Assembly (NCBI RefSeq): GCF_000190375.1
Contig: NZ_AEWG01000105.1
Span: 62,001-126,000 of the forward strand
DNA: 64,000 bases
Direction: 5' to 3'
Source: Rubrivivax benzoatilyticus JA2 = ATCC BAA-35
GTDB lineage: Bacteria; Pseudomonadota; Gammaproteobacteria; Burkholderiales; Burkholderiaceae_C
How positions within the stretch are numbered: the stretch's first letter is position 1; every line of letters begins with the position of its first letter. This document shows positions 50,452-63,671 of this stretch, piece by piece. The notes under the pieces are model-generated. The model worked only from the letters and a program-made list of their open reading frames with translations. It was not told the origin of the DNA and did no database searches. The translations under genes and the position numbers were made by a program.

Positions 50452-53400
50452 ATGTGGATCACCCGCGTCTCGATCCGCAACCCCGTCTTCGCGACCATGG
50501 TCATGGTCGCGCTGTGCGTGCTGGGCGTCTTTTCCTACATGCGGCTGGGTGTCGAGCAGATGCCCGACATCGCGCTGCCCGGGGCCTACGTCGAGGTGTC
50601 GTACCCGGGCGCTTCGCCCGAGGCCGTCGAGCGTGAGATCACCAAGCCGCTGGAGGAGTCGGTCAACGGCATCGCCGGCGTCAAGCGCCTGACCTCGCGC
50701 AGCTTCGAGGGCCGCAGCCAGACCAGCATCGAGTTCACGCTGGACACCGACATGGGCCGCGCGATGCAGGACGTGCGCGACCGCGTCGCCGCGGCGCAGG
50801 CACGTTTCCCCGACGACGCCAAGCCGCCGCTGATCAACCGCTTCGACAACGAGAACTCGCAGCCGGTCGTCGCGCTGGCGCTGCTGTCGGACACGCGCAG
50901 CCAGCGCGAGCTGTCGATCATCGCCGACCAGGTGGTGAGCCGCCGGCTGCAGCGTGTCGACGGTGTCGCCCGCGTCGACGTCAGCGGCCTGGCGCTGCGC
51001 GAGGTGCGCATCGACCTCGACCCCGAACGCCTGCGCGCCTACGCGGTGACGCCGGCCGAGGTGGCCAAGGCGCTGGACGAGGCCAATGCAGACGAGCCGG
51101 TGGGCCTGCTCAGCAACGAGCGCGCCGACGCCATCCTGCGGGTCGAGGGCCGCGTGCGCGACCCGCGCGAGTTCGAGAACACCATCGTCGCGCACCGCAA
51201 CGGCCTGCCGCTGCGCCTGGGTGACCTGGGCCGGCTGGTCGAGCGCGAGCGCGAGCCCGACTCGTTCGCCCGGCTCAACGGCCGCACGGCGATCAACTTC
51301 AACGTCTTCAAGCAGCAGGACGCGAACATCGTCGCCACTGGCGAGAAGGTCAAGGAGGCGATGGACGAACTCGGCCGCACGCTGCCGCCGGACACCCAGA
51401 TCGAGCTCGTCTACGCCGCCAGCGACTGGGTCAAGGGCTCGCTCGTCGGCCTGCGCCACACGCTGATCGAAGGCGCGCTGCTGACGGTGGCCATCGTCTT
51501 CCTGTTCCTGCACTCGTGGCGCAGCACGGTCATCACCGGGCTGACGCTGCCGATCGCGGTGATCTCCAGCTTCATCGCCGTGCACGCCTTCGGCTTCACG
51601 CTGAACTTCATGACGATGATGGCCTTGTCGCTGTGCATCGGCCTGCTGATCGACGACGCGATCGTCGTGCGCGAGAACATCGTGCGCCACGTGCACATGG
51701 GCAAGGACCACTACACCGCCGCCGACGAAGGCACGCGCGAGATCGGCCTGGCGGTGATGGCGACGACCTTCGCGATCTGCGCGGTGTTCGTGCCGGTGGC
51801 CTTCATGGGCGGGATCATCGGCAAGTTCTTCTACCCGTTCGGCATCACCGTCGTCGTCGCGGTGCTGGTCAGCCTGTTCGTCAGCTTCACGCTCGACCCG
51901 ATGCTGTCCAGCGTCTGGCGCGACCCGCCGTCGGCGCGCCTGGCGCGGCTGCCGGTCATCGGCGCGATGCTGCGCGGCGTCGACCGCGGCATGGACGGGC
52001 TGCACACGGTCTACGAGCGCCTGATCCGCTGGGCCTTCGGCCCCAAGCGCTGGCGCCTGTTCGGCGTGCCGGCCTTCGCCCGGCCTTTCGGCGCCGACGG
52101 CCGGCGCGACCGCAGCCAGCGCCGCTGCTGGCGCTGGGCGACGCTGACGCCGCGCGGCGTCGTGATGGCCACCGGCGGCGCGAGCTTCGTCGCCGCGCTG
52201 ATGCTGGCGCCGCTGGTCGGCTCGGAGTTCGTGCCGCAGACCGACCAGGGCTTCACGCAGCTGTCGATCCGCATGCCGGTGGGCTCCAGCCTGGAGCGCA
52301 GCGACGCCAAGGTGCGCCAGGTCGAGGAGATCGTCGCCTCGTTCCCCGAGGTCAAGAACGTCGCCACCAGCGTCGGCGGCCAGGGGGCCGGGCTTTCGAC
52401 CGGGCGCAACCAGGCGGTGCTGAACATCGGCCTCGTCGACCGCCGCGAACGTGACCGCACGCAGAAGCAGGTCGAGGACGCGATCCGCGAGCGCATCGCG
52501 GCGATCCCGGGCATCGAGACCTCGGTCGGCTTCGACCGCCCGATCTACGTCGCCATCCTCGGCAGCGACCCCGAAGGCCTGGCGCGTGTGGCCAGCGACT
52601 TCGCCGAGAAGGTGAAGAAGATCCCCGGCATCGCCGACGTCGAGCTGTCGGTCAAGCCCGGCGTGCCGGCCTATGCGGTGCGGCTGCTGCCGGCGGCGGT
52701 GCGCGAGCTCGGCCTGACCGCGCCGCAGCTGGCGTCGAGCCTGCGCGCCTACGTCAACGGCGAGGTCGCGACCTACTGGACGACGCCCGACGGCGAGCAG
52801 GTCGAGGTGCTGCTGCGCCTGCCGCAGGACGCGCGCCAGGAGCTCGAACAGATGCGCAAGCTGCCGGTGGCCTTCGCCAAGGACGGCACGCCGATCCCGC
52901 TGGACGCGGTGGCCTCGATCGAGTCGGTGGTCAACCCGGAAGTCATCCGGCGCCAGAACCTGCAGCGCCGCGAGGCGATCTTCGCCGGGGTGCAGGGGCG
53001 CCCGGCCGGCGACGTCGGCGCCGACGTGCAGAAGCTGATCGCCGAGACCTCGCTGCCGCCGGGTTTCACCTTCGACGTCGGCGGCCAGACCAAGGACCAG
53101 AACGAGGCCTTCACGGCGATGCTCGGCGCGATGGCGCTGGCGGTGATCTTCATCTACATCGTGCTGGCCAGCCAGTTCGGCAGCTTCGTGCAGCCGGTGG
53201 CGATCATGGCCTCGCTGCCGCTGTCGCTGATCGGCGTGATGATCGCGCTGCTGGTCTCGGGCTCGACGCTCAACGTCTTCTCGATGATCGGCCTGGTGAT
53301 GCTGATGGGCCTGGTGACGAAGAACGCGATCCTGCTCGTCGATTTCGCCAACCACGCCCGGCGCGACGGCGCCAGCGTGCCCGAGGCGCTGCTGCAGGCC

Positions 53401-53673
53401 GGGCTGACGCGCATGCGGCCGATCGTCATGACGACCGCGGCGATGGTCTTCGGCATGCTGCCGCTGGCGATGGCGCTCAACGACGGCGGCGAGATCCAGG
53501 CGCCGATGGGCCGGGCGATCATCGGCGGCGTCATCACCTCGACGCTGCTGACGCTCGTCGTCGTGCCGGTGCTCTACAGCTACCTGGTGCGTGATCGCAA
53601 GCCGAAACCGGCGCCGGCGGCCGAGCCCGGCGGCGGGGTGCTGCCGGCCGGGGCGAGTGCCGACCGCGACTGA
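50452..53673 (+). CDS. RND multidrug-type efflux permease
   Basis: 1073-residue inner-membrane transporter of the AcrB/MexF superfamily (12 helices, two large periplasmic loops). Start [20 protein letters not shown] and motifs [35 protein letters not shown] (proton-relay Asp pair) and [15 protein letters not shown] are intact. The central cytoplasmic linker (about residues 480-570) is longer than usual and Arg-rich. No outer-membrane factor gene is adjacent, so the channel must be encoded elsewhere. A strong terminator follows. Confidence 0.94.
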
Positions 53674-53690
53674 CGCGGGAGCGTTGAACG

Positions 53691-53720
53691 AGAAGGCCGC
53701 CTGAGGGCGGCCTTCTTCTT
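53691..53720 (+). terminator. Terminator of the RND operon
   Basis: Perfect 11-bp stem AGAAGGCCGCC / GGCGGCCTTCT with a four-base loop, then TTCTT. The left end of the accessory element begins seven bases later. Without the element this hairpin would lie about 50 bases beyond the stop of the convergent ABC gene and could serve both operons. Confidence 0.85.
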
Positions 53721-53725
53721 GGAGG
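53719..53725. repeat. Left direct repeat TTGGAGG (possible target duplication)
   Basis: TTGGAGG at 53719-53725 and again at 62588-62594, immediately outside the two terminal inverted repeats. The left copy is followed by one additional T before the inverted repeat. This is the pattern expected of a 7- or 8-bp target-site duplication. Confidence 0.6.
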
Positions 53726-53726
53726 T

Positions 53727-53748
53727 GGGTGTTATCACGCAGATGGCC
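53727..53748 (+). repeat. Left terminal inverted repeat
   Basis: GGG-TGTTATCACGCAGATGGCC (22 bp). It matches the reverse complement of 62566-62587 at 20 of 22 positions; both mismatches are A/T exchanges. It defines the left end of the accessory element. Confidence 0.8.
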
Positions 53749-53871
53749 AATGTCATGCTAAATCAAGGGCTTAGGTCATTCTGAGACCCGGTCCGCGACG
53801 CAATTAGGGGCCCGTGCGGGCGCGCTACGACCTGGGTCGGGTCAGGCACTCGTGGGCATGACGCCCCCGCC

Positions 53872-54375
53872 ATGCCGATCACCTCACCGCGCCGCCACCT
53901 CCTGCCGCTCGCGCTCGCCGCGGCTCTCGCCGGCTGCAGCACGGTCCCGCAGGACGCTGGCGCTCCCCTCCCGACCCGGTCGGCGCCCTTGCGAGCCCTG
54001 AACCCGGATGTCCGCCCTGAAACCAACCAGCAGACCATCTGCGTGCCGGGCTACACGGTCTCCATCCGTCCTTAGACGAGCTTCACCAACGGCGTCAAGC
54101 TGAAGCTGATGTGGGGCGCGAACCTCCCAGCGGACCGCGCCGCCGACTTCAAGCATGACCACCGCGTTGCCCTAGCTCTGGGCAGGCGCCCTCGGGCGCT
54201 GGAGAACCTGACACACCAGCCCTGGGAAGGCGAGGCCGGCGCCAAGCGCAAGGACAGGCTCGAGCGCCGGCTGCAGCAACTGGTCTGCTCGGGCAAAGTG
54301 GCTCTCGACCGGGCGTAAGGCGCCCCCTACTTCGATTGGGAGACCGCGTACGGCGAGTTTGTCGGCAGCCGATAG
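53872..54375 (+). pseudogene. Decayed HNH-like exported lipoprotein gene
   Basis: A single frame of 168 codons with two internal stop codons (TAG at 54073, TAA at 54316) before the final TAG at 54373. The first 67 codons encode a lipoprotein signal (LALAAALAGCSTVPQ). The rest of the same frame reads CVPGYTVSIRP, ADFKHDHRVALALG, RALENLTHQPWEGE and YFDWETAYGEFVG, a pattern like small HNH-type proteins where a D/H-R-x-P-L-x-L-G motif precedes an N-L...Q-P segment. The continuous homology-like reading on both sides of each stop shows a broken gene rather than several small genes. Confidence 0.6.
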
Positions 54376-54563
54376 CCGCGTGGACTTTAGATAGGCGCAC
54401 AAGCCGCGCGAATCCAACACCGCATGCCGCCCGATGCACTTAGCGGCTGCAACACCTTCCGTGCCGTCACGAAGGGCTTCCTAAACCGTGTCGAGGAGTG
54501 GACACCTTGCTTCCGCGCGCTGAGGCTATCGAGCTGGTTCAGTCGCTCTCCCGGCCGACGCGC
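54376..54563. other. Intergenic stretch without recognised gene
   Basis: 188 bases between the pseudogene and the end of the nuclease gene. Short reading frames are present but none shows a start, ribosome site or protein-like pattern. No terminator with a T-run is visible. Confidence 0.5.
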
Positions 54564-56015
54564 TCAGGCCTTCGACCCCGAGGTCTTGTTGTCGCGCCCT
54601 GCGTCGATGAGCACGATGTCCTCCCGACCCTGGAGCTTAAGGTCGCGGAGGATGTTGGTCACCTTATCGAGCTCGGCCTCTGAGAAGTACAGGATGACCT
54701 TGACCGCCTTCTCAGTCTGGCTGGCCTTGGCATAGACCTCGACCTGCTTCTCAAGATTGCGTCGAAGGCTTGAGTTGCTCGCCAGCTTGAACTCCACAAG
54801 GCTGGCGTTTTTCTTCCCCTTCGAAACCTTGTAGTCCACCGGCCCGCGGCCGTTGTTGACCTCAGCGTTGACGTCGTAAGCGGTGGCGTACCAGGTCAGC
54901 CGGTACATGATGTGAAGGTCGCTCTCGCGCTTCACCGGCTGACCGTCAACGTAGAAGACCCGGTACCCGTCGTTGTCCTCAATGACGTGTTTCAGGTATT
55001 TCACGCGCTGCAGGGCCTCCTCGTACGAGTCACCGCGCTCGTAGAACTCGGTACCGGCTAGGTGCTTCAGCACTAGCTCGCGGATGTTCTCGACGAACTG
55101 GCGGTGTGTCTCCTGCACCTTCTGGCTGCTGACGGCGTGGGCTTCGTCAGCGTGCTCTTCCTTCCACTTGATGTAGTGGTCAATCAGCTCAGTGAACTGC
55201 TCGATAGTCCGCAAGGCTGCCTTCTTGCGCTCGTCCTGCGTTGACCTGTCCGTGATTTGCCGAAGGAAGTGGTCGTTGACCTGCGCGCGCAGGTGTTCGT
55301 CCGGCAGCGAAGTTCGCAGCTGGAAGAACTGGCTGAGCATGTCGCCTTGGTTAATCCAGGCCTCGTCGCGCGTCAGGATTTCGCACGGGGTAAGGATGAC
55401 GTAGTCGTTGTCATGCCAGGGCAGCGTGAAGTGCCCAGACTGCCACCGACGGGTCTCGTAGTTGAACTGAACTCGGTCGACATGCACGCGCCGTAGCCGT
55501 TCAGGCGCGATGTGCCTCGTGGCGAAGTCCTCTGTGTACTTCAGCAGCCAGCCCTTGATGAGGTTCGTCGTGAAGTCGCTGAGGTGGTCGCGGCCAACGC
55601 CGCCGCTCAAAAGTCCCAGTTTCTCCAGATGGGAGCTCCGGGTCATGGTCTCTTCGCCGAAGTTGCGGAACACGCGCTTGAAGTTCCGGGTCAGCGCGTC
55701 GGCGAAGTGCCGTCCTAAGCCCGTGCCACTGTTCCCTTGCTGGCTGAATCCAAGCCAGTTCTGCTTGACCTCGCGGAAGAACAACCACTGAGAGATGGCG
55801 CCCTCGGTCAGCTCGTCGGCCTGTGCGCGGTCTCGGACGAAGACCAAGTACTTGATGATGCCGTCGTGCAGCTCACGCAGCTCGGGTCGCTCGCTGTCGA
55901 ACAGCAAAAAGGGGTCGACGAACAAGGGCAGGTCGTTGACCAGCGCGATGTTGAAGGCGCCATGCGCCTCGAGAATATCCTGCTCGACGCCGAACACATC
56001 GGAGAAGTAAATCAT
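54564..56015 (-). CDS. Unknown protein with C-terminal PD-(D/E)xK nuclease-like domain
   Basis: 483 residues. I do not recognise the whole family. The N-terminus (YFSDVFGVEQDILEAHGAFNIAL, LFVDPFLLFDS) is a conserved-looking domain without signal peptide. The C-terminal part carries a PD-(D/E)xK-type arrangement: Asp394 in GPVDYKVS and Glu408-Phe-Lys410 in LVEFKLAS, 14 residues apart, followed by a helix with a conserved-looking Q (EKQVEVYAKA). This is the signature of restriction and DNA-repair nucleases. An AAGGAGG ribosome site nine bases upstream supports the start. The neighbourhood of nuclease genes suggests a defence role; this is inference. Confidence 0.7.
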   Translation of the reverse strand: MIYFSDVFGVEQDILEAHGAFNIALVNDLPLFVDPFLLFDSERPELRELHDGIIKYLVFVRDRAQADELTEGAISQWLFFREVKQNWLGFSQQGNSGTGLGRHFADALTRNFKRVFRNFGEETMTRSSHLEKLGLLSGGVGRDHLSDFTTNLIKGWLLKYTEDFATRHIAPERLRRVHVDRVQFNYETRRWQSGHFTLPWHDNDYVILTPCEILTRDEAWINQGDMLSQFFQLRTSLPDEHLRAQVNDHFLRQITDRSTQDERKKAALRTIEQFTELIDHYIKWKEEHADEAHAVSSQKVQETHRQFVENIRELVLKHLAGTEFYERGDSYEEALQRVKYLKHVIEDNDGYRVFYVDGQPVKRESDLHIMYRLTWYATAYDVNAEVNNGRGPVDYKVSKGKKNASLVEFKLASNSSLRRNLEKQVEVYAKASQTEKAVKVILYFSEAELDKVTNILRDLKLQGREDIVLIDAGRDNKTSGSKA

Positions 56016-56147
56016 CCGTTCCCGCCTCCTTAAAGTCTTCGGGCATGTGCCAAGGCTTTAGCTCTTTCGGCCCGAACGGATTGTCGCCGAGCATCAAGAG
56101 CGGCTCATGCTAACCCGACGTCGGGCCGCTGACAGGGAGGCGGCGAC

Positions 56148-56990
56148 TTAGACGGTCCAGCCCAATCCCAACGCGTCCGATACTCTTTCGAGCATGCGCT
56201 TCTTGTTTGGCGTTTTGCAGTGCGTCATGACGAACTGGCCACCCGCTGGTTTGGATCCAAATGGGTACTTGGTCGATTTCGTCTTGGAGACAAGAGGTTC
56301 GCCTGCGAAGACGTAGCCGAGACCTGCGACTTTGGTCAGGTCCGCGGCAACAAGTGCGGCGACGAACGTGCCTGCTGCCGTGACTTCTGCGATGACTGTT
56401 CCGACCGGTGTCAGCACGCGCAGGAAAGTGGACGTCGCGCTCGGAATTGGAGACGGAGGTGGTGGAAGCACAGGCGGCGGTGGCGGCGGAGTCGCGGGGC
56501 GGGTCAGCCCGAGCGCCACGCTGTAGCTGAGGAACTGCTTGACGAGGCCATCGGCCATGGCGACGTGCTCGGCGTCCATGCTTTCCAACCGAAGCCGTTT
56601 GACCTCGAGAGAGCTTGACAACGGCGACTGTTCAAGTCGGTAGTCGAGCGCGCTGAGCGTGTCGTACAGCTTTGCTTCGCCGTAGTCGAGATACCGGGAG
56701 AGGCCCTGGTACCGCATCATCAGCATGACTCGCCGCTGTCCAATCTTTTCGTTGGTCTTGTGGTTGCGCAGCCGCACCGAAAGGTCGACAGACTTCCCGA
56801 CGTAGACCGTCGAGTCCTCGGCCTGAAGGATGTAGAGGCCCGGCGAGCCACCGGCGCTTTCCAGCAGCCGCTTGAACTGGTCTTTGGACGCAACGAGTAC
56901 GACCAGCGAGGTGTGCTGGTCAGTGGATTTGAAGAAGAAGTTTCCGAAGTCCGGGGGTGAGCTGTCGAGGACGAGTTCGGCGATGGGCAT
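56148..56990 (-). CDS. GIY-YIG domain protein with polyproline hinge
   Basis: 280 residues. The GIY-YIG nuclease core is clear: Gly51-Leu-Tyr53 (GLYILQAEDS), Tyr63-Val-Gly65 (VYVGKSVDLSVRLRNH) with Arg73 and His77, and a candidate catalytic Glu105 (DYGEAKLYD). A proline-rich hinge (residues 165-183) then links to a C-terminal domain of about 95 residues (LRVLTPVGTVIAEVTAAG, PAGGQFVMTHCKTPNKKRM) not recognised. It is cytosolic. No ribosome site is obvious. It is 132 bases upstream of the nuclease-like gene in the same direction and could be co-transcribed. Confidence 0.8.
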   Translation of the reverse strand: MPIAELVLDSSPPDFGNFFFKSTDQHTSLVVLVASKDQFKRLLESAGGSPGLYILQAEDSTVYVGKSVDLSVRLRNHKTNEKIGQRRVMLMMRYQGLSRYLDYGEAKLYDTLSALDYRLEQSPLSSSLEVKRLRLESMDAEHVAMADGLVKQFLSYSVALGLTRPATPPPPPPVLPPPPSPIPSATSTFLRVLTPVGTVIAEVTAAGTFVAALVAADLTKVAGLGYVFAGEPLVSKTKSTKYPFGSKPAGGQFVMTHCKTPNKKRMLERVSDALGLGWTV

Positions 56991-57214
56991 GGCGGTTTCA
57001 GCAAGGGGCTGCCTCGTCTAGGCACGCCTGCCCAGCCGGGCTGTCCCGTCGTCGTACCCCCGCAGGGCCGGGATGCCTTACCATTGGCGTCAAGGCGTCT
57101 GAGCCGAACCTGTTCCCGGGTTAAAGCAGACACAGCACTTCGCGCCACCGAACGGACTTCAATCCGGGTCGATGCGTAATCGGGAAACGTCGACCACGCA
57201 GATTGGAGTGCCGT
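56991..57214. other. Divergent intergenic region
   Basis: 224 bases between the GIY-YIG gene and the rightward gene. It must contain both promoters, but no convincing -35/-10 pair was found by eye. A GGAG ribosome site precedes the right gene. Confidence 0.5.
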
Positions 57215-57961
57215 ATGGCCGCCACACCACTGTGCGAGGCACCGCTCGCCGCCCTGAAGAAGTCGCTCCGCGACGAGTTCCCCCACGTCAAGTCGTCGCA
57301 CCTGAGCGAGGCGCTGGCCCACAGCCTGGGCTTCCGGACCTATGCCGCGATGCAGGCAGCGATGGTCGGGCCTGAGCAAGACCGCCCCTTCGCCCTGCTG
57401 CAGACGCAGCGGTTCGTGGAGCGCCTGAAACAGCTCGGCTACGAGGTCGACCCGGAGTTCGACTTCGAGATGACCATCCTCACGCCCGTGCCGGGTGTCG
57501 TCTCGACGGTGCCGGACTCTGCCTACGACATTGAATACAAGACGACCCGGCAGAAGGCCTGGCGCAACCTGTTGGTCTGCGCCGTGAACGCCGCCCTGGA
57601 GCAGAAGCTGTTCACCCTCCGGCCTGGCGACAACCGCTTCCCGGACAAGATGCGCCGAGGCGAGGTCTTCGACTTCGTACTGCCCAACGGTCTGCCGGCC
57701 CGTGGGTCGGTCTCAGATGCTGGCTTCAACGAGCTGTCTGTGCACGCCGCGGTGAATCCCAAGGGCGACATGGTCCGCGCCTTCAACGGCGGCTTCGACG
57801 CCGGTGACGCCTTCGGCACTACCTGGGTGGAGCGCGAGCGCGGCGCGTGGATGCAGTCGTCAGACAGCTCGTTCAACTGCCGGAAGGGCCTGCTGGACCA
57901 TCTTGCCGCGCTGCAGGTCGAGCCGATGGGCTACGGCGACCGCGGGCGGGTCATTATGTGA
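57215..57961 (+). CDS. Hypothetical protein, helical N-terminus LGFRTYAAM-type
   Basis: 248 residues, not recognised as a whole. The N-terminal 45 residues (ALKKSLRDEFPHVKSSHLSEALAHSLGF then RTYAAMQAAM) resemble the short helical module found at the N-terminus of several accessory-genome proteins, which pairs a Lys/Arg-rich helix with a GF-x-[TS]-[YW/H] turn. The rest is mixed alpha/beta (LPNGLPARGSVSDAGFNEL, AFGTTWVERERGAWMQSSDSSFNCRKGLLDHL). No signal or membrane segment. The ATG at 57215 has a GGAG site; an in-frame TTG at 57203 is less likely. A perfect hairpin follows. Confidence 0.6.
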   Translation: MAATPLCEAPLAALKKSLRDEFPHVKSSHLSEALAHSLGFRTYAAMQAAMVGPEQDRPFALLQTQRFVERLKQLGYEVDPEFDFEMTILTPVPGVVSTVPDSAYDIEYKTTRQKAWRNLLVCAVNAALEQKLFTLRPGDNRFPDKMRRGEVFDFVLPNGLPARGSVSDAGFNELSVHAAVNPKGDMVRAFNGGFDAGDAFGTTWVERERGAWMQSSDSSFNCRKGLLDHLAALQVEPMGYGDRGRVIM

Positions 57962-57967
57962 GGCGTA

Positions 57968-57999
57968 GCGGGCCCGTTTTCACGTCGCGACGGGCCCGC
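57968..57999 (+). terminator. Hairpin after the hypothetical gene
   Basis: Perfect 10-bp stem GCGGGCCCGT / ACGGGCCCGC with a 12-base loop, seven bases after the stop. No T-run follows, so termination is possible but not certain. It separates this gene from the large gene downstream. Confidence 0.55.
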
Positions 58000-58050
58000 G
58001 CACCAGAGCACATCTGGCGCTAACGAGAACAACAACTTCAGGAGGCCTGC

Positions 58051-61000
58051 TTGCACGCGATTCCCTTCGAAATCCCGCCGCCCAAAAACGAGGCGGACTT
58101 CGAACGCATGTGCGCACACGTGTACGGCGTCGTCTTCGATGACCGGATGCCCAAGATGAACGGCCGTCGTGGCCAAGTTCAGGGCGGTGTTGACGTCTTC
58201 GTGAAGGAAGCTGGCGTCGGGCGGGTCGGTATCCAGTGCAAGAAGTACACGATGAAGCCTGTCAAGTGGGACGACGTCGTGGACGAGGTCGGAAAGGCCG
58301 ACAAGCACGGCACGCCCATCAAAAAGCTCATTCTGGCTACCACCGCGCCGAACGACGCGGCCTTGCTGAAGAAGGTTCAGGAACTCTCCGACGCGCGCGA
58401 AGCCAAGGGGCTGTTCCCAGTTGAGGTGGAGTTCTGGGAAGACATCTGCAATCACATTGACCGGTTCCCGGTCCTTCAAGACAGCTACGCACCGAACAGC
58501 CCTGGCGCCGCCTACCACCGACAGGACGCGGCTCTCAGCAACTTGCAGACCCTTGTCCTGGAGCAGCGCGACACGCTGCTCGGCATGTCTGCGCTTCCAA
58601 CTGCCCGGCTCGACTCCGTCGACCGGCTCATCTCGGACCAGCTAGACCGAACCAACGAACTCCTGAAGGCGGGTCGATACCGCGACGCGCTCGACCACCT
58701 GGCCGTCGTCGGCAAAGACCTTGGGCCCTTCGATGCCCACCAGAAGGCTCGCTGGTACCTGCAGAAGGGCCTCAGCCTATGGTTCATGCGTGTCGATGAC
58801 GGGGAGTCAGCCCAGTTGTTCCTGAAGGCGTACGAGCTCTACCCGGACGACGAACGCATGGCTGCTGCTCAGGTCCGCGGGCTCATGCTTGAGAAGAAGT
58901 TGCCCGAGGCTCGTTCTGCGGGAGAGGCTGCGCTCGAGCGGTTCCCCGATTCCCAGCAAGTCTGGTTCGCGCTGGCCAACGCCCGCCTCGTTCAGGGCGA
59001 GCTGGTTCGGATGTCTGACGTGCCTGAGGCGTTAAAACAAGAGCCCGATACGTTGCAGTTCGTGGCGCAGGCTGAGCTCAAAGCTGGGAACCTGGACGCA
59101 GCCATCAAGTTCAGCCAGGAGGCGGCCAACCATCCCGCAGCTGCGTTCTTCATCCGGGCCAACGCGCTTCGCATCGCCGCCGAGTGCGGCTCGAGGTTCC
59201 CGGTAGGTGCGATGGCGGGCGCGCTGCCGGTGCGTGAGACCAAGGCACTCGAGTTCGCGGTCGCTCAGTTCAACCCGTGGCATGAGCGCCTGTGGCAGGT
59301 TCAGTCCGAGTCAGTGACGGAGACTGTCGCCCACCTCGGCTACGCGTTGTTGATGCTGCACCGCTTCGGCGACGCACTGGCTCTTGCCAAGGACGCTGAG
59401 GCGCACGGACATCGCTCCGCCGAGATTCTCCGCACCCAGGTGACCGCTCTCTTTGAGCTGGACCGTGAAACTGAGCTTCTCGCTCTTGCGACGGGGCGTC
59501 TGGCCGATATGAACGACGCCAGCTTGACTGTCGTGGGTCAAATCGCCGCTAAGAACGGAAATCTGGCGCTGTTGAAGCAGACGCTGGACGCAGCGCTGGC
59601 GCGAGACCCCGTCGACAGCGAGACGGCTGAGCTGCTTGCTGCCCTCCGCTGGGACGCGTTGACCCGAGCCGACCAGCAGGACGCTGCCGTCAGCGAGGTG
59701 ATTGCAGCCAAAGTCGCTGAGACCGGCGGTCTCATTACTGCCTGCGTCGCGGCGCGCGTCCTCAACCGGGCAGGCCGCGCGTTGGAGGCCGACGCCATCG
59801 TGCAACGCGCCAAGTCCTTGGTCACCGAGGAGAGCAACGACGGCCAACGGCTGATGCTGGCGGAATTGCTGTTCTCCATGGGGCGATTCTCCAAGGCCGC
59901 GGCCCTTTTCGAGCGGCTGGTGACGCCCGGTCGCCTTTCCGACCTGCACAACAGGCTGCTCGCGTGCTACGTGCGGTCTCACAACCGGCGCAAGGCCAAG
60001 GAGCTGCTCGAAGGTCTGCCCGCAGAGTGGGTTGACAACGACGAAACCCGCAGCCTCGCCATCGAGCTAGGGCAGCAAGCGGCCGACTGGGCCTTCGTGC
60101 GCCCGTTGATGGACGCCCAGTTGAAGAAGCATCCGATCGCGGCTGGAAGCTGGGTCTTCAAGATGGGCGTGAGCCTGCACTCATCGACGCCGCCTGAGTT
60201 TCAGAACGACCTTCGCAGTGTCCCGGAGCTGCTTGAGGGCCGCATTCGGCCGATGGCGCAGCTGGCTACGCTTGAACTCCGCTACGGAGAGGCGGAGCGA
60301 GGTATGCGCCGGCTCTATCGAATGCTCCGCAGCAATCTGGATGAGCCGGAGGCGCTGTCGGCGTACTTCATTTCGGTCGTCGCCGCACCCGGCGCGTTGC
60401 CGCTCATGGACGAGAAACTCCCGGCGGTCGTCCCCGGCAGCTGCGTCACGCTGGTTGACGAGTTCGGACAGGCTACGCAGCTGGTCATCGACCCGTCGGA
60501 CGTTGGCGAGTTGCCGAAGCGCGCCGGCTACGCGGACCAAGCCGCGCCCGAGGCGGCGGCGATGCTTGGTGCTGTCGTCGGGCAACAGGTCAGCCTTCCA
60601 GCCCTCGCGTTTGGCGACACGAAGGCCTATACGGTGACCGCCATCCAGTCTGCGTACCGACACATGCTGAAGGTCGTGCAGGAGCGGGCCAGTGCACTGG
60701 GCGGACTGCCGCACATGAAGATGGTCCCTGTCGGCATGACCGGCGACGGGGAGCGCGACCTCGCGCACATGAAGGCCGAAGTCATGCGCTCTTCGGCCAT
60801 GGTGCGGCAGCTCTTCGACGTTTACGCCACGGGGCACATGACGCTCTCCGGCTTCGCCGAACGTCAGGGTCGCAGCACCGTTGAAGCCGTCTTGGGCTGG
60901 CCATCTGAAGGACCGCCGCTCTTTGTCGGTACGGGCATCGAGGCAGAGCGCGTTGCCGCGCTTCAGCTGCTCGCACGACCCGACGCGGTCTACGTCATCG

Positions 61001-62175
61001 ACGCCATGACCATCGCCGAACTCGTCAATCTTGGGGTTCAAGAGGCGCTCGGTCACCTCCCAAAGGTGCTCGTGTCGTCAGTGACCAAGACGATGCTGGA
61101 AGGGTTCGTGCGCGAGGCCGAAGAAGACCGAAGTGTCGCGACCAGCACGGAAGTCGAAGGGCAGCTTGCCCTCATCGAGCACGACGCCCGGTACCACGCG
61201 CGCCGCATCGAGTTCTTCAAGGCGCTGCTTGTTGCAGTCGAGCAGTACTGCGAAGTGCAGCCGGCCTACGGCGAGCTTCCGAACGAAGGCGAAGTGCCGC
61301 GCCTGGCCGAAGTACTCCAGGACGAAGAACTGGATGTCCTGCTATTGGCCAAGTCGGCGGGGGCTACGGTCTTGACGCTGGATGGTCGGTTCCGCTCTGT
61401 CCTGGAAGTGGTAGCCAAGGTTCCCGGCGTCTGGCCCCAAGCTCTGCTGATGCACTGCGCAACCAAAGATTTGGTCGACCCGATGAAGCTGGCGGCGGCA
61501 ACCATTCGCCAGTTTCTGTCCAACCGTAGCTTCGTTTCGCTGGGCTCCGGAGACCTCACGTGGATGGTCTTGCAAGGCGGTGCGTACCTGCAGCAAGGCA
61601 TGCGCCGCTTCAAGGGCTACCTCTCGTCGCCCGATACCGAGTTCGCTTCGACGGTGAGCGTCGCGTTCGAGTTCTTGTCGCGAATCGCGACTCTGAACAT
61701 CCATCTCGGCGCCTTCGGGGAATTGTTCGAGCACGTCGTCGAGGCGGCCATGCGGCACAAGCAATGCCCCGCCGACTTCCACCTTGCCGTTTCGAACTTC
61801 GTCGAGGAGCTTACGGATTCGCTCAGTGGCAGGGAGCACCTGTACGGGGCTGTCAATGTCCAACGAGGCCGGCGCGTCTACCTGCAACGGCAGTTCTTGG
61901 CGCAGCGCTTTGTTCGCGCCCGTGACCGTCTGAAGGAGGCGCCGGACAATCGTCCAGTCGCTGTGCGCGCAGTCTTCTGCAGCCCCATTCCTTGGTTGGT
62001 CGCCGACAAGTCGAACACCGCCCCTGATGCCGCGGCGGAGTTACAGCAGCCGGCACCAGGTGAGGGGCAGCCTTCGGGAGAGGCTGCCGCCACTGCCGAG
62101 ACGGCTACGAAGGCGAGTCACCCTGGCAAGGCCTTCCTGGTTGCTGCGCTCAAACCGAGGTTCGGTCGGGGCTGA
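58051..62175 (+). CDS. 1374-residue Mrr-like nuclease, helical repeats, GreA/B-C-like and PIN-like fusion
   Basis: Domain order: (1) residues 1-150, restriction-endonuclease-like (Mrr type) with Asp48 in GGVDVFV and Gln62-Cys-Lys64 in GIQCKKY; (2) about 200-720, a long array of helical TPR-like repeats; (3) about 795-885, a GreA/GreB C-terminal-like beta domain ending MLGAVVGQQVSLPALAFG then TKAYTVTAI; (4) about 975-1120, a PIN-like ribonuclease domain with Asp984 (YVIDAMTIAEL), Asp1095 (ELDVLLLAKSAGA) and Asp1111 (VLTLDGRF); (5) a helical C-terminal region and an Ala/Pro-rich tail. Start is TTG at 58051 with an AGGAGG five bases upstream. TPR, GreA/B-C and PIN combinations have been reported as bacterial conflict proteins; the added Mrr-like domain is notable. 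Domain calls are by eye. Confidence 0.7.
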   Translation: MHAIPFEIPPPKNEADFERMCAHVYGVVFDDRMPKMNGRRGQVQGGVDVFVKEAGVGRVGIQCKKYTMKPVKWDDVVDEVGKADKHGTPIKKLILATTAPNDAALLKKVQELSDAREAKGLFPVEVEFWEDICNHIDRFPVLQDSYAPNSPGAAYHRQDAALSNLQTLVLEQRDTLLGMSALPTARLDSVDRLISDQLDRTNELLKAGRYRDALDHLAVVGKDLGPFDAHQKARWYLQKGLSLWFMRVDDGESAQLFLKAYELYPDDERMAAAQVRGLMLEKKLPEARSAGEAALERFPDSQQVWFALANARLVQGELVRMSDVPEALKQEPDTLQFVAQAELKAGNLDAAIKFSQEAANHPAAAFFIRANALRIAAECGSRFPVGAMAGALPVRETKALEFAVAQFNPWHERLWQVQSESVTETVAHLGYALLMLHRFGDALALAKDAEAHGHRSAEILRTQVTALFELDRETELLALATGRLADMNDASLTVVGQIAAKNGNLALLKQTLDAALARDPVDSETAELLAALRWDALTRADQQDAAVSEVIAAKVAETGGLITACVAARVLNRAGRALEADAIVQRAKSLVTEESNDGQRLMLAELLFSMGRFSKAAALFERLVTPGRLSDLHNRLLACYVRSHNRRKAKELLEGLPAEWVDNDETRSLAIELGQQAADWAFVRPLMDAQLKKHPIAAGSWVFKMGVSLHSSTPPEFQNDLRSVPELLEGRIRPMAQLATLELRYGEAERGMRRLYRMLRSNLDEPEALSAYFISVVAAPGALPLMDEKLPAVVPGSCVTLVDEFGQATQLVIDPSDVGELPKRAGYADQAAPEAAAMLGAVVGQQVSLPALAFGDTKAYTVTAIQSAYRHMLKVVQERASALGGLPHMKMVPVGMTGDGERDLAHMKAEVMRSSAMVRQLFDVYATGHMTLSGFAERQGRSTVEAVLGWPSEGPPLFVGTGIEAERVAALQLLARPDAVYVIDAMTIAELVNLGVQEALGHLPKVLVSSVTKTMLEGFVREAEEDRSVATSTEVEGQLALIEHDARYHARRIEFFKALLVAVEQYCEVQPAYGELPNEGEVPRLAEVLQDEELDVLLLAKSAGATVLTLDGRFRSVLEVVAKVPGVWPQALLMHCATKDLVDPMKLAAATIRQFLSNRSFVSLGSGDLTWMVLQGGAYLQQGMRRFKGYLSSPDTEFASTVSVAFEFLSRIATLNIHLGAFGELFEHVVEAAMRHKQCPADFHLAVSNFVEELTDSLSGREHLYGAVNVQRGRRVYLQRQFLAQRFVRARDRLKEAPDNRPVAVRAVFCSPIPWLVADKSNTAPDAAAELQQPAPGEGQPSGEAAATAETATKASHPGKAFLVAALKPRFGRG

Positions 62176-62277
62176 CCGGGTTGCCCGCTCCCTATGGCGG
62201 GCCGTCCCTATGATGTGGTGATGCGTGCCTCCCACGCACCCCACCGTTGCAAGCCAAGACGTGTGCTGCACCCGGAC

Positions 62278-62400
62278 GATGTCCAGCCGCTCGCGGGAGC
62301 GCTCTTGGGCCCCGGCCAGGGCGGCACGCTCGTTGAGGAGCCACTTGAGGTCGGGTGGCGTTCGCTGAGACGCCGTCAGTTGCCGCGGCTGGGTCGGTCG
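62278..62400 (-). pseudogene. Possible recombinase-associated gene fragment
   Basis: A minus-strand frame reads QRTPPDLKWLLNERAALAGA then QERSRERLD, which looks like real coding sequence from the start region of a gene found with site-specific recombinases in other islands (recalled, not checked). The frame upstream of it (SSSPSQSSLTSLQAQPQAEPT) is in a different phase, and no complete gene follows: downstream it runs antisense into the large gene. So it would be a frameshifted remnant. Confidence 0.3.
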
Positions 62401-62565
62401 GCTCCGCCTGGGGCTGGGCTTGCAGCGAGGTTAGCGAAGACTGGCTGGGAGACGAGGACTGGGGCATGGAGGTAGCGCATGAGGGCACACTACCTCTGTG
62501 AAGGGACGCGTTCAGTTAAGGTGGACGCGCCCGGAGACCTGGAAACAGGTTTTCTAGTCCCCTTG

Positions 62566-62587
62566 GGCCATCAGCGAGATAACACCC
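62566..62587 (-). repeat. Right terminal inverted repeat
   Basis: On the minus strand it reads GGG-TGTTATCTCGCTGATGGCC, matching the left repeat (53727-53748) at 20 of 22 positions in inverted orientation. Further inward the two ends diverge, with only scattered similarity. Confidence 0.8.
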
Positions 62588-62594
62588 TTGGAGG
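62588..62594. repeat. Right direct repeat TTGGAGG
   Basis: Same seven bases as at 53719-53725, directly abutting the right inverted repeat and 12 bases before the stop codon of the convergent ABC ATPase gene. Confidence 0.6.
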
Positions 62595-62606
62595 CGCGTC
62601 GCGCGC

Positions 62607-63671
<1,065 letters not shown>

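What the first reader, a model, noticed from the sequence alone, without database searches (positions are those of the whole stretch)
53727..62587. An 8.9-kb defence-like cargo element with terminal inverted repeats and no transposase
The segment has matching ends, TGTTATC[A/T]CGC[A/T]GATGGCC in inverted orientation (20 of 22 bp match), and TTGGAGG directly repeated just outside. It sits exactly between two convergent operons, a typical neutral target. Inside are several nuclease-type genes and no intact mobility gene. A cargo element mobilised in trans, or a decayed transposon, would explain this. The ends may mark a family of elements carrying other cargo elsewhere.
Basis: partly seen in the sequence, partly recalled or inferred. 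Interest (0 to 1): 0.85.

Follow-up and report, generated by a model that had tools for sequence, protein, structure and literature searches.

The report
Transposase-less defence transposon at gene terminator
The segment is a real mobile element that has lost its transposase, and its relatives form a family of transposons that often carry anti-virus genes and insert at a nearly fixed distance behind the "stop" hairpins of bacterial genes.

Summary
Confirmed and extended. The 8.86-kb segment (53727-62587) has 22-bp inverted ends matching 20 of 22. A 96%-identical relative has the exact empty site with one TTGGAGGC: an 8-bp target duplication, one base changed. The ends mark a family. Of 11 elements with both ends on one contig, 8 have perfect 8-bp duplications and 3 have 7, 7 and 6 of 8; two more are paired across contigs by identical duplications. 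Relatives encode an IS1595-family DDE transposase, most with a LexA-like repressor, an unknown ~245-aa protein and end-proximal coiled-coil proteins. The window element lacks a transposase but keeps a short remnant of the coiled-coil gene. Some relatives carry CBASS, QatD, HaeIII restriction-modification or helicase-nuclease genes. Unexpectedly, 21 of 22 elements have one end just behind a terminator-like hairpin; in 19 its axis is 22.5-24.5 nt from the end (background 0.5-0.7%). Verdict: a non-autonomous member of a terminator-targeting IS1595-type transposon family. The kind is known; the combination of target rule, accessory genes and cargo was not seen in the paper searches run.

The parts
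53691..53716 (+). Terminator hairpin of the upstream RND gene = target; dyad axis 23 nt before the element
   Evidence: 11-bp perfect stem, 4-nt loop, 23.0; RNA fold of 45 nt, -26.3 kcal/mol, z -4.5. The consensus terminator scan found none here, probably because the stem runs into the T-rich tail
53719..53726 (.). left copy of the 8-bp target duplication (TTGGAGGT)
53727..53748 (+). left terminal inverted repeat
53760..53776 (+). conserved subterminal motif AAATCAAGGGCTTAGGT of the left end
   Evidence: alignment A1; part of model R1
53872..54400 (+). decayed gene: lipoprotein-like start and HNH-like end (both likenesses recalled, no profile hit) in one frame with in-frame stops
   Evidence: no Pfam match for its two ORFs
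54564..56015 (-). 483-aa predicted nuclease (PADLOC candidate PDC-M36A; weak PDDEXK_9 below cut-off)
   Evidence: 18 plasmid records hold relatives, the 8 listed 44-53% identical
56148..56990 (-). 280-aa GIY-YIG domain protein
   Evidence: PF01541, E 1e-4, 23.0 bits against a cut-off of 22.6
57203..57961 (+). 252-aa protein, no significant family match
58051..62175 (+). 1374-aa TPR protein with PIN domain of the TPR-GreAB-C-PIN system; Mrr-like N-terminus by motif only
   Evidence: PF20698 E 3e-15, TPR_14 E 9e-7; the Mrr-like motif is recalled, not a profile hit; no PADLOC match
62302..62427 (-). remnant of the family's end-proximal coiled-coil accessory gene
   Evidence: in a search of the last 450 bp alone, four of five accessory proteins match (E 2e-4 to 2e-3, 37-62% identity over 21-38 aa); in the wider search of the same call at E 1e-3 the window did not appear
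62566..62587 (-). right terminal inverted repeat
62588..62595 (.). right copy of the 8-bp target duplication (TTGGAGGC)

Best explanation
The segment is a non-autonomous (transposase-less) DDE transposon of an IS1595-type family. Shown by sequence: inverted ends, target duplication, precise empty site, relatives with the same kind of ends that encode an IS1595 transposase with accessory genes, and a short remnant of one accessory gene in the window. Also shown: nearly all family members found have one end just behind a terminator-like hairpin whose axis is about 23 nt from that end. Inferred: an IS1595-type transposase supplied by another element cut at the two ends and joined them to a staggered 8-bp cut behind the RND gene's terminator; the ~245-aa protein, or the transposase itself, recognises the hairpin or T-tract; the LexA-like protein represses transposition until stress. 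The cargo is most likely anti-phage or anti-plasmid, as in several relatives. The insertion leaves both neighbouring genes and the terminator intact.
For: Empty site with one 8-bp copy. Of 11 elements with both ends on one contig, 8 have 8/8 duplications, 2 have 7/8 (the window is one) and 1 has 6/8; G010 and G357 are paired over two contigs because their duplications agree. G357, whose ends resemble the window's, holds an IS1595 transposase beside its right end (PF12762 E 8e-25, PF12760 E 7e-7). The transposase lies between both ends in G140, G100 and G067. All five aligned transposases keep D185, D304 and E340 (that these are the DDE triad is recalled). Accessory-gene remnant in the window. 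Terminator rule: 13 of 13 two-ended and 8 of 9 one-ended elements have a terminator-like hairpin beside one end; 19 of 22 fall in the 22.5-24.5-nt bin with a perfect stem of at least 6 bp. Background: 602 of 119330 sampled positions and 154 of 21577 positions behind ORFs. 0 of 11 opposite flanks tested qualify. The patterns and the model that found the ends cover the inside of the element only, not the flanks.
Against: The window's own duplication is 7 of 8. Its genome has no PF12762 match, so no present helper is seen, though the assembly is a 164-contig draft. The accessory remnant is short and was significant only in a search of the last 450 bp. G173 shows no terminator at its one visible end; G057 (25.0 nt) and G349 (12-nt loop) miss the strict bin. 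Several one-ended cases (G295a, G152, G158) have no second end and no transposase found near them. Orientation is not absolute: in G393 the accessory-gene end faces the terminator, opposite to G100 and G067. Defence function of the window's cargo rests on family names alone, and 6 of 10 cargo proteins of relatives had no PADLOC match. Control IS1595 elements are few and were judged by eye.
Confidence: 0.88

Rival explanations
1. Genomic island integrated by a tyrosine or serine recombinase between short att repeats.
For: Defence-like cargo beside a gene end, a short direct repeat at both junctions.
Against: No recombinase domain in the six ORFs tested. Junction repeats are 8 bp and differ in sequence from element to element, as in a DDE target duplication and unlike an att core. 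Relatives between such ends carry an IS1595 DDE transposase.
Confidence: 0.03
2. A mobile insertion cassette with no wider rule: a transposase-less IS1595 derivative that landed behind a terminator only because that is harmless DNA.
For: Intergenic insertion is tolerated; three other IS1595 elements with fairly clear ends (L069, L072, L196) show no such hairpin in their flanks (by eye), and in L197 annotated Ldh genes lie on both sides, as if the element sat inside one gene.
Against: Positions 25-140 nt behind ORFs have the hairpin at that distance in 154 of 21577 cases, against 19 of 22 elements. T stands at -13 in 18 of 19 flanks and at -14 in 18 of 19.
Confidence: 0.06
3. Terminator placement reflects transcription-coupled insertion: RNA polymerase paused or terminating at the T-tract exposes DNA, and no protein recognises the hairpin itself. 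(A variant of the best explanation's targeting step, not of its identity.)
For: Stem sequences differ widely while axis distance and T-tract position are kept; the T-tract lies on the element's side of the stem in the flanks listed.
Against: Nothing here separates it from direct hairpin recognition.
Confidence: 0.3

Closest known systems
IS1595-family insertion sequences and transposons (Siguier, Gagnevin and Chandler 2009; recalled, seen only as a reference in PMC3942029)
   Same: Transposase domains PF12762 and PF12760 in relatives; ends starting GG, 8-bp target duplication and occasional passenger genes (these three as family traits are recalled)
   Different: Relatives here carry LexA-like, HAD-like, ~245-aa and coiled-coil genes and lie behind terminators; the window copy has no transposase
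Mobile insertion cassettes (search listing; details recalled)
   Same: Inverted ends flank cargo, no transposase, presumed mobilisation in trans
   Different: IS1595-type ends, defence-like cargo, terminator target
IS1272 / TnSha1 of staphylococci (PMC4923244, passages read)
   Same: Insertion at hairpins, several of them transcription terminators, without primary sequence specificity
   Different: That element inserts into the hairpin stem, deletes part of the target, is described as making blunt cuts without duplication, and inserts in both orientations; here the hairpin stays whole and the 8-bp duplication lies 15-23 nt beyond its axis
Group IIC introns (PMC7923331, passages read)
   Different: Retroelements acting through intron RNA; here a DDE transposon with inverted ends
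Mutator-type DDE elements of the ISKra4 group that insert upstream of promoters (PMC3942029, passages read)
   Same: DDE elements aimed at a transcription signal
   Different: Promoters, not terminators; another transposase family

Membership tests
IS1595-type transposon | DDE transposase PF12762 (with zinc ribbon PF12760) | tested here: not met
   Absent from the window element's tested ORFs and from the genome; present in relatives with the same kind of ends. Hence filed as a transposase-less derivative, not as an autonomous member
IS1595-type transposon | 8-bp target duplication (family trait recalled) | tested here: met
   Empty site; 7/8 in the window, 8/8 in 8 of 11 elements with both ends on one contig
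IS1595-type transposon | Inverted ends matching those of an element that carries the transposase | tested here: met
   G357 ends against window ends
Mobile insertion cassette | Inverted ends, cargo, no transposase | tested here: met
Mobile insertion cassette | Mobilised in trans | not testable with these tools
   Only inferred from small members with 8-bp duplications
IS1272/TnSha1 | Inserts into the hairpin stem with target deletion and no duplication | tested here: not met
   Hairpin intact, 8-bp duplication
Tn7-like | 5-bp duplication and TnsABC genes (recalled) | tested here: not met
   8-bp duplication; no Tns family among the ORFs tested
Group IIC intron | Reverse transcriptase and no inverted ends | tested here: not met
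   No reverse transcriptase among the ORFs tested; inverted ends present
TPR-GreAB-C-PIN protein (58051-62175) | PIN domain PF20698 with TPR repeats | tested here: met
TPR-GreAB-C-PIN protein (58051-62175) | GreAB-C domain | tested here: inconclusive
   No separate GreAB-C family in the list

The most novel reading that the evidence does not exclude
A family of IS1595-type defence transposons uses a dedicated target-selection protein (the ~245-aa protein, found in 5 of 270 family genomes, all of which also have the transposase) to read terminator hairpins as DNA cruciforms or through stalled RNA polymerase. A LexA-like repressor switches it on under DNA damage. This gives safe chromosomal landing sites for swappable defence cargo, with transposase-less cassettes such as the window's riding along.
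Probability: 0.4. Interest if true: 0.85.

Novelty: new variant of a known kind. Interest (0 to 1): 0.7.

Why it matters
Terminators occur throughout a bacterial genome, and an insertion just behind one spares the neighbouring genes. A DDE transposon that finds them at near-fixed spacing would be a new way of choosing a safe site and a possible tool for clean insertion. It would also help explain how different defence systems (CBASS, restriction-modification, Qat-type, helicase-nuclease) move between chromosomes of these bacteria. The rule gives an easy way to look for more defence cargo: read what lies between such ends.

Tried and rejected
Plasmids: the whole element matched 3 records over 1% of its length only; the left-end sequence, a coiled-coil protein and the ~245-aa protein gave no match; the transposase matched 106 records, all below 60% identity. 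Viral contigs: neither the ~245-aa protein nor the transposase found relatives (single-protein queries reach close relatives only). Order-wide scan with the end model: 399 genomes, nothing I accept outside the window genome (best other match 25.8 bits and partial). Genome contigs pattern scan: 4 loci only, the pattern was strict. Genus scans around G295 (1 of 7 genomes) and G357 (1 of 18) found no new element. PDB: no useful relative of the ~245-aa protein; mainly coiled coils for the accessory protein. The consensus terminator scan did not call the window's terminator.

Rows dropped before counts: of 24 rows, 10 that start inside the model (position 9 or later, 24-26 bits) were treated as partial or chance, leaving 14 places in 13 genomes. 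Of the 61 places, I kept those with a second end, a model hit or a convincing core; G278, G082, G116, G345, G113 and G331 were fetched and not counted. G393 and G158 were fetched afterwards, flanks unseen, because their cores looked real; both have the hairpin, at 23.0 and 23.5 nt, and the three chance-like ones fetched with them have none that I can see in the printed flanks. G393 holds the transposition genes, but its second end was not found; G158 has neither second end nor family gene found. G380 has a weak second end (17/22, 5/8 duplication) and is counted as one-ended. G349 is complex: an end of another type lies about 25 kb in. Controls with other IS1595 elements: likely ends with 7-8 of 8 duplications in L069, L072, L196 and L073; the first three show no hairpin by eye, and L073 sits in a T-run beside a GC-rich stem. 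I accept no ends for L071, L076, L185-L187, L194, L195 or L197; L070, L074 and L075 were not examined for ends.

Considered and rejected: recombinase island, Tn7-like, IS1272-like, group II intron (see membership rows).
Full report
1. Reading 53400-63000 gives left end GGGTGTTATCACGCAGATGGCC at 53727 and right end GATAACACCC at 62578-62587; the 22-bp ends match 20 of 22. The core is unique in the window (0 of 100 shuffles with two matches); in the genome it has two exact matches, both these, and 25 with 2-3 mismatches. The element is 63% G+C against 73% in the left flank and 69% in the right.

2. Empty site. Of 81 genomes of the genus, own included, 18 have a strong match to the right flank. 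In one, G418, the left and right flanks of the window align to one stretch with an overlap of 8 bases, and the site reads ...GGGCGGCCTTCTTCTTGGAGGCGCG.... Two other close relatives differ there: G417 shows no left-flank match in the 1.5 kb held, and G419 has about 850 bp of other DNA between terminator and ABC gene. So the window gained the element by a precise insertion with an 8-bp duplication, one copy now differing at its last base. The left-end model finds an end in 1 of 81 genomes of the genus, the window's own (stricter filters).

3. The ends mark a family. A pattern scan of 399 genomes of the bacterial family found, besides many chance-like single matches, an inverted pair 1.16 kb apart in G267. 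Aligned ends gave a 61-bp left-end model, which finds 14 convincing places in 13 of 399 genomes and none that I accept outside the window genome in 399 genomes drawn from the order. Second ends and duplications: window 7/8; G267, G238, G136, G295b, G213, G140, G100 and G067 8/8; G208 7/8; G072 6/8. That is 11 elements of 0.63 to 12.2 kb with both ends on one contig. G010 and G357 have their two ends on different contigs; I pair them because their 8-bp flanks agree (GTGTCTGG, TTTTCCGG), so those two 8/8 values are not independent. Total: 13 two-ended elements.

4. The transposase. In G357 the contig with the right end carries a 418-aa protein with DDE_Tnp_IS1595 (E 8e-25) and the IS1595 zinc ribbon (E 7e-7). 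A search of 299 family genomes with it at E up to 1e-40 found 8 places in 7 genomes. Five of the places (G140, G100, G067, G173, G057) lie beside ends of this kind, both ends being found in G140, G100 and G067; the other three (two in G164, one in G238) show no such ends. Accessory genes found with them: LexA/S24-like repressor in G067, G100, G173, G357 and G140, not found in the G057 piece, which ends at the contig edge; ~245-aa protein without family match in all six; HAD-like protein in G173 and G357 (and, by eye, G100); one or two coiled-coil proteins near one end in G067, G100, G173, G357 and G140. G349 holds LexA-like, ~245-aa and part of the transposase in the stretch first fetched, and G393 holds LexA-like, ~245-aa, transposase and two coiled-coil genes. 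The ~245-aa protein was found in 5 of 270 genomes, all five with the transposase.

5. What the window element is. No transposase was found in its tested ORFs, and its genome has no match to the family (0 in G000; 7 of 21 genus genomes have some IS1595 domain; 0 in G000). At its right end (62302-62427, minus strand) four of five accessory proteins match a 21-38-aa stretch with the KWLLNE motif (E 2e-4 to 2e-3 in a search of the last 450 bp; the window did not appear in the wider search at E 1e-3). G072 has a similar 37-aa remnant (E 3e-4), and G295b still has two copies while no transposase of this kind matched in it. So the window element is probably a derivative of a full transposon that lost its transposition genes while keeping both ends.

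6. Cargo. Window: a 483-aa PDC-M36A/PDDEXK-like protein, a GIY-YIG protein, a 252-aa unknown and a 1374-aa TPR-PIN protein, plus a decayed gene at the left. Relatives of the 483-aa protein are in 18 plasmid records (8 listed, rhizobial and other, 44-53% identity), those of the 1374-aa protein in 22 (8 listed, mostly Burkholderia, 30-35%). Ten cargo proteins of relatives against PADLOC: 4 of 10 matched, a CBASS cyclase (E 1e-99) and E2 (E 3e-47) in G380, QatD (E 4e-74) in G267 and a PDC-S37/Hhe/Mokosh-like helicase-nuclease (E 9e-69) in G072; 6 did not match. Pfam adds a C5 methylase with a HaeIII endonuclease and a T5orf172 protein in G057, an N6/N4 methylase in G173 and a Fic protein in G100. 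Other members carry a 2H phosphoesterase (G208), a YgjP-like peptidase (G295b) or proteins without a family match. So defence cargo is frequent, not universal.

7. Terminators. In the list of outer flanks the left flanks look like textbook terminators (for example AAAAACCGCCTTCGGGCGGTTTTTTTGTTTTGCGC| in G295b). With a perfect stem of at least 6 bp and a 3-5-nt loop, the dyad axis lies 22.5-24.5 nt before the element in 17 of the 21 ends first tabulated. Two of the four misses, G173 and the G357 end on contig C5, are ends next to the coiled-coil gene; G357's other end is among the 17. The remaining two are G057 (25.0) and G349 (stem with a 12-nt loop, by eye). Two further ends fetched as a test fit at 23.0 and 23.5. 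Counting each element once: 22 elements (13 two-ended, 9 one-ended), 21 with a terminator-like stem at one end, 19 in the bin. None of 11 opposite flanks qualifies. Background is 602 of 119330 sampled positions in the fetched loci and 154 of 21577 positions 25-140 nt behind ORFs. In 19 flanks T stands at -13 in 18 and at -14 in 18, and stem sequences differ, so structure or T-tract seems to matter more than stem sequence. The window's own target has an 11-bp perfect stem at 23.0 and folds at -26.3 kcal/mol, though a consensus scan did not call it. Orientation: in the window and most members found by the left-end model, the end with the AAATCAAnnACTTAGGT-like motif faces the terminator, and in G100 and G067 the coiled-coil genes lie at the far end; in G393 the coiled-coil end faces the terminator. 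So orientation is a bias, not a rule. Controls are few: L069, L072 and L196 show no hairpin by eye, L073 lies in a T-run by a GC-rich stem.

8. What is known. Passenger genes in IS1595-type elements are known in general (recalled). Hairpin or terminator targets are known for IS1272/TnSha1, with deletion and no duplication (PMC4923244, passages), and for group IIC introns (PMC7923331, passages). Promoter-directed DDE elements are known (PMC3942029, passages). Passages of PMC6382973 and PMC7371123 gave nothing on such targeting. Searches for IS1595 with passenger genes, terminators, target sites or defence, and for transposons at terminators, were read as listings: 14 of 14; 15 of 903; 0 papers; 4 of 4; 12 of 139; 1 of 1; 2 of 2. 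No listed title or abstract describes this family or rule; listed papers other than those named were not opened. The library lacks most subscription papers, and ISfinder was not available.

9. Verdict. Ordinary in kind (a transposase-less transposon with cargo), unusual in its family's target rule and accessory genes. How the terminator is recognised, and whether the window copy can still move, are inferences.

Noticed in passing
L090 (G419), about 850 bp between the RND terminator and the ABC gene: At the same intergenic site a close relative has other DNA directly behind the same terminator; it may be another insertion at this site.
   Followed up: no
L073 979-2064: A 1086-bp IS1595 element of another end type (GGCTCAGTTCGCG...) in the same genus has the duplication AAAGAAAA, that is a T-run beside a GC-rich stem; terminator preference may be wider in IS1595 elements.
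   Followed up: partly
L166 7535-9878 and L171 1981-4027 (G295): Both elements of this genome hold what looks like the same IS21-type gene pair (named by recall, likeness by eye), so they have been invaded by other elements.
   Followed up: no
L060 3902-5788 and L108 1570-3324 (G357 and Paracidovorax wautersii): A ~600-aa protein, alike by eye in two genera, lies near the left end of both elements; the G357 copy has no PADLOC or Pfam match. Candidate new defence gene.
   Followed up: partly
L170 990-1652 and L167 15886-16449 (G072, G349): Two elements share, by eye, a small gene (187-220 aa) beside large system genes, pointing to a shared multi-gene system.
   Followed up: no
window 53872-54400: One decayed reading frame with a lipoprotein-like start and an HNH-like end (likeness recalled), broken by in-frame stops.
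   Followed up: partly
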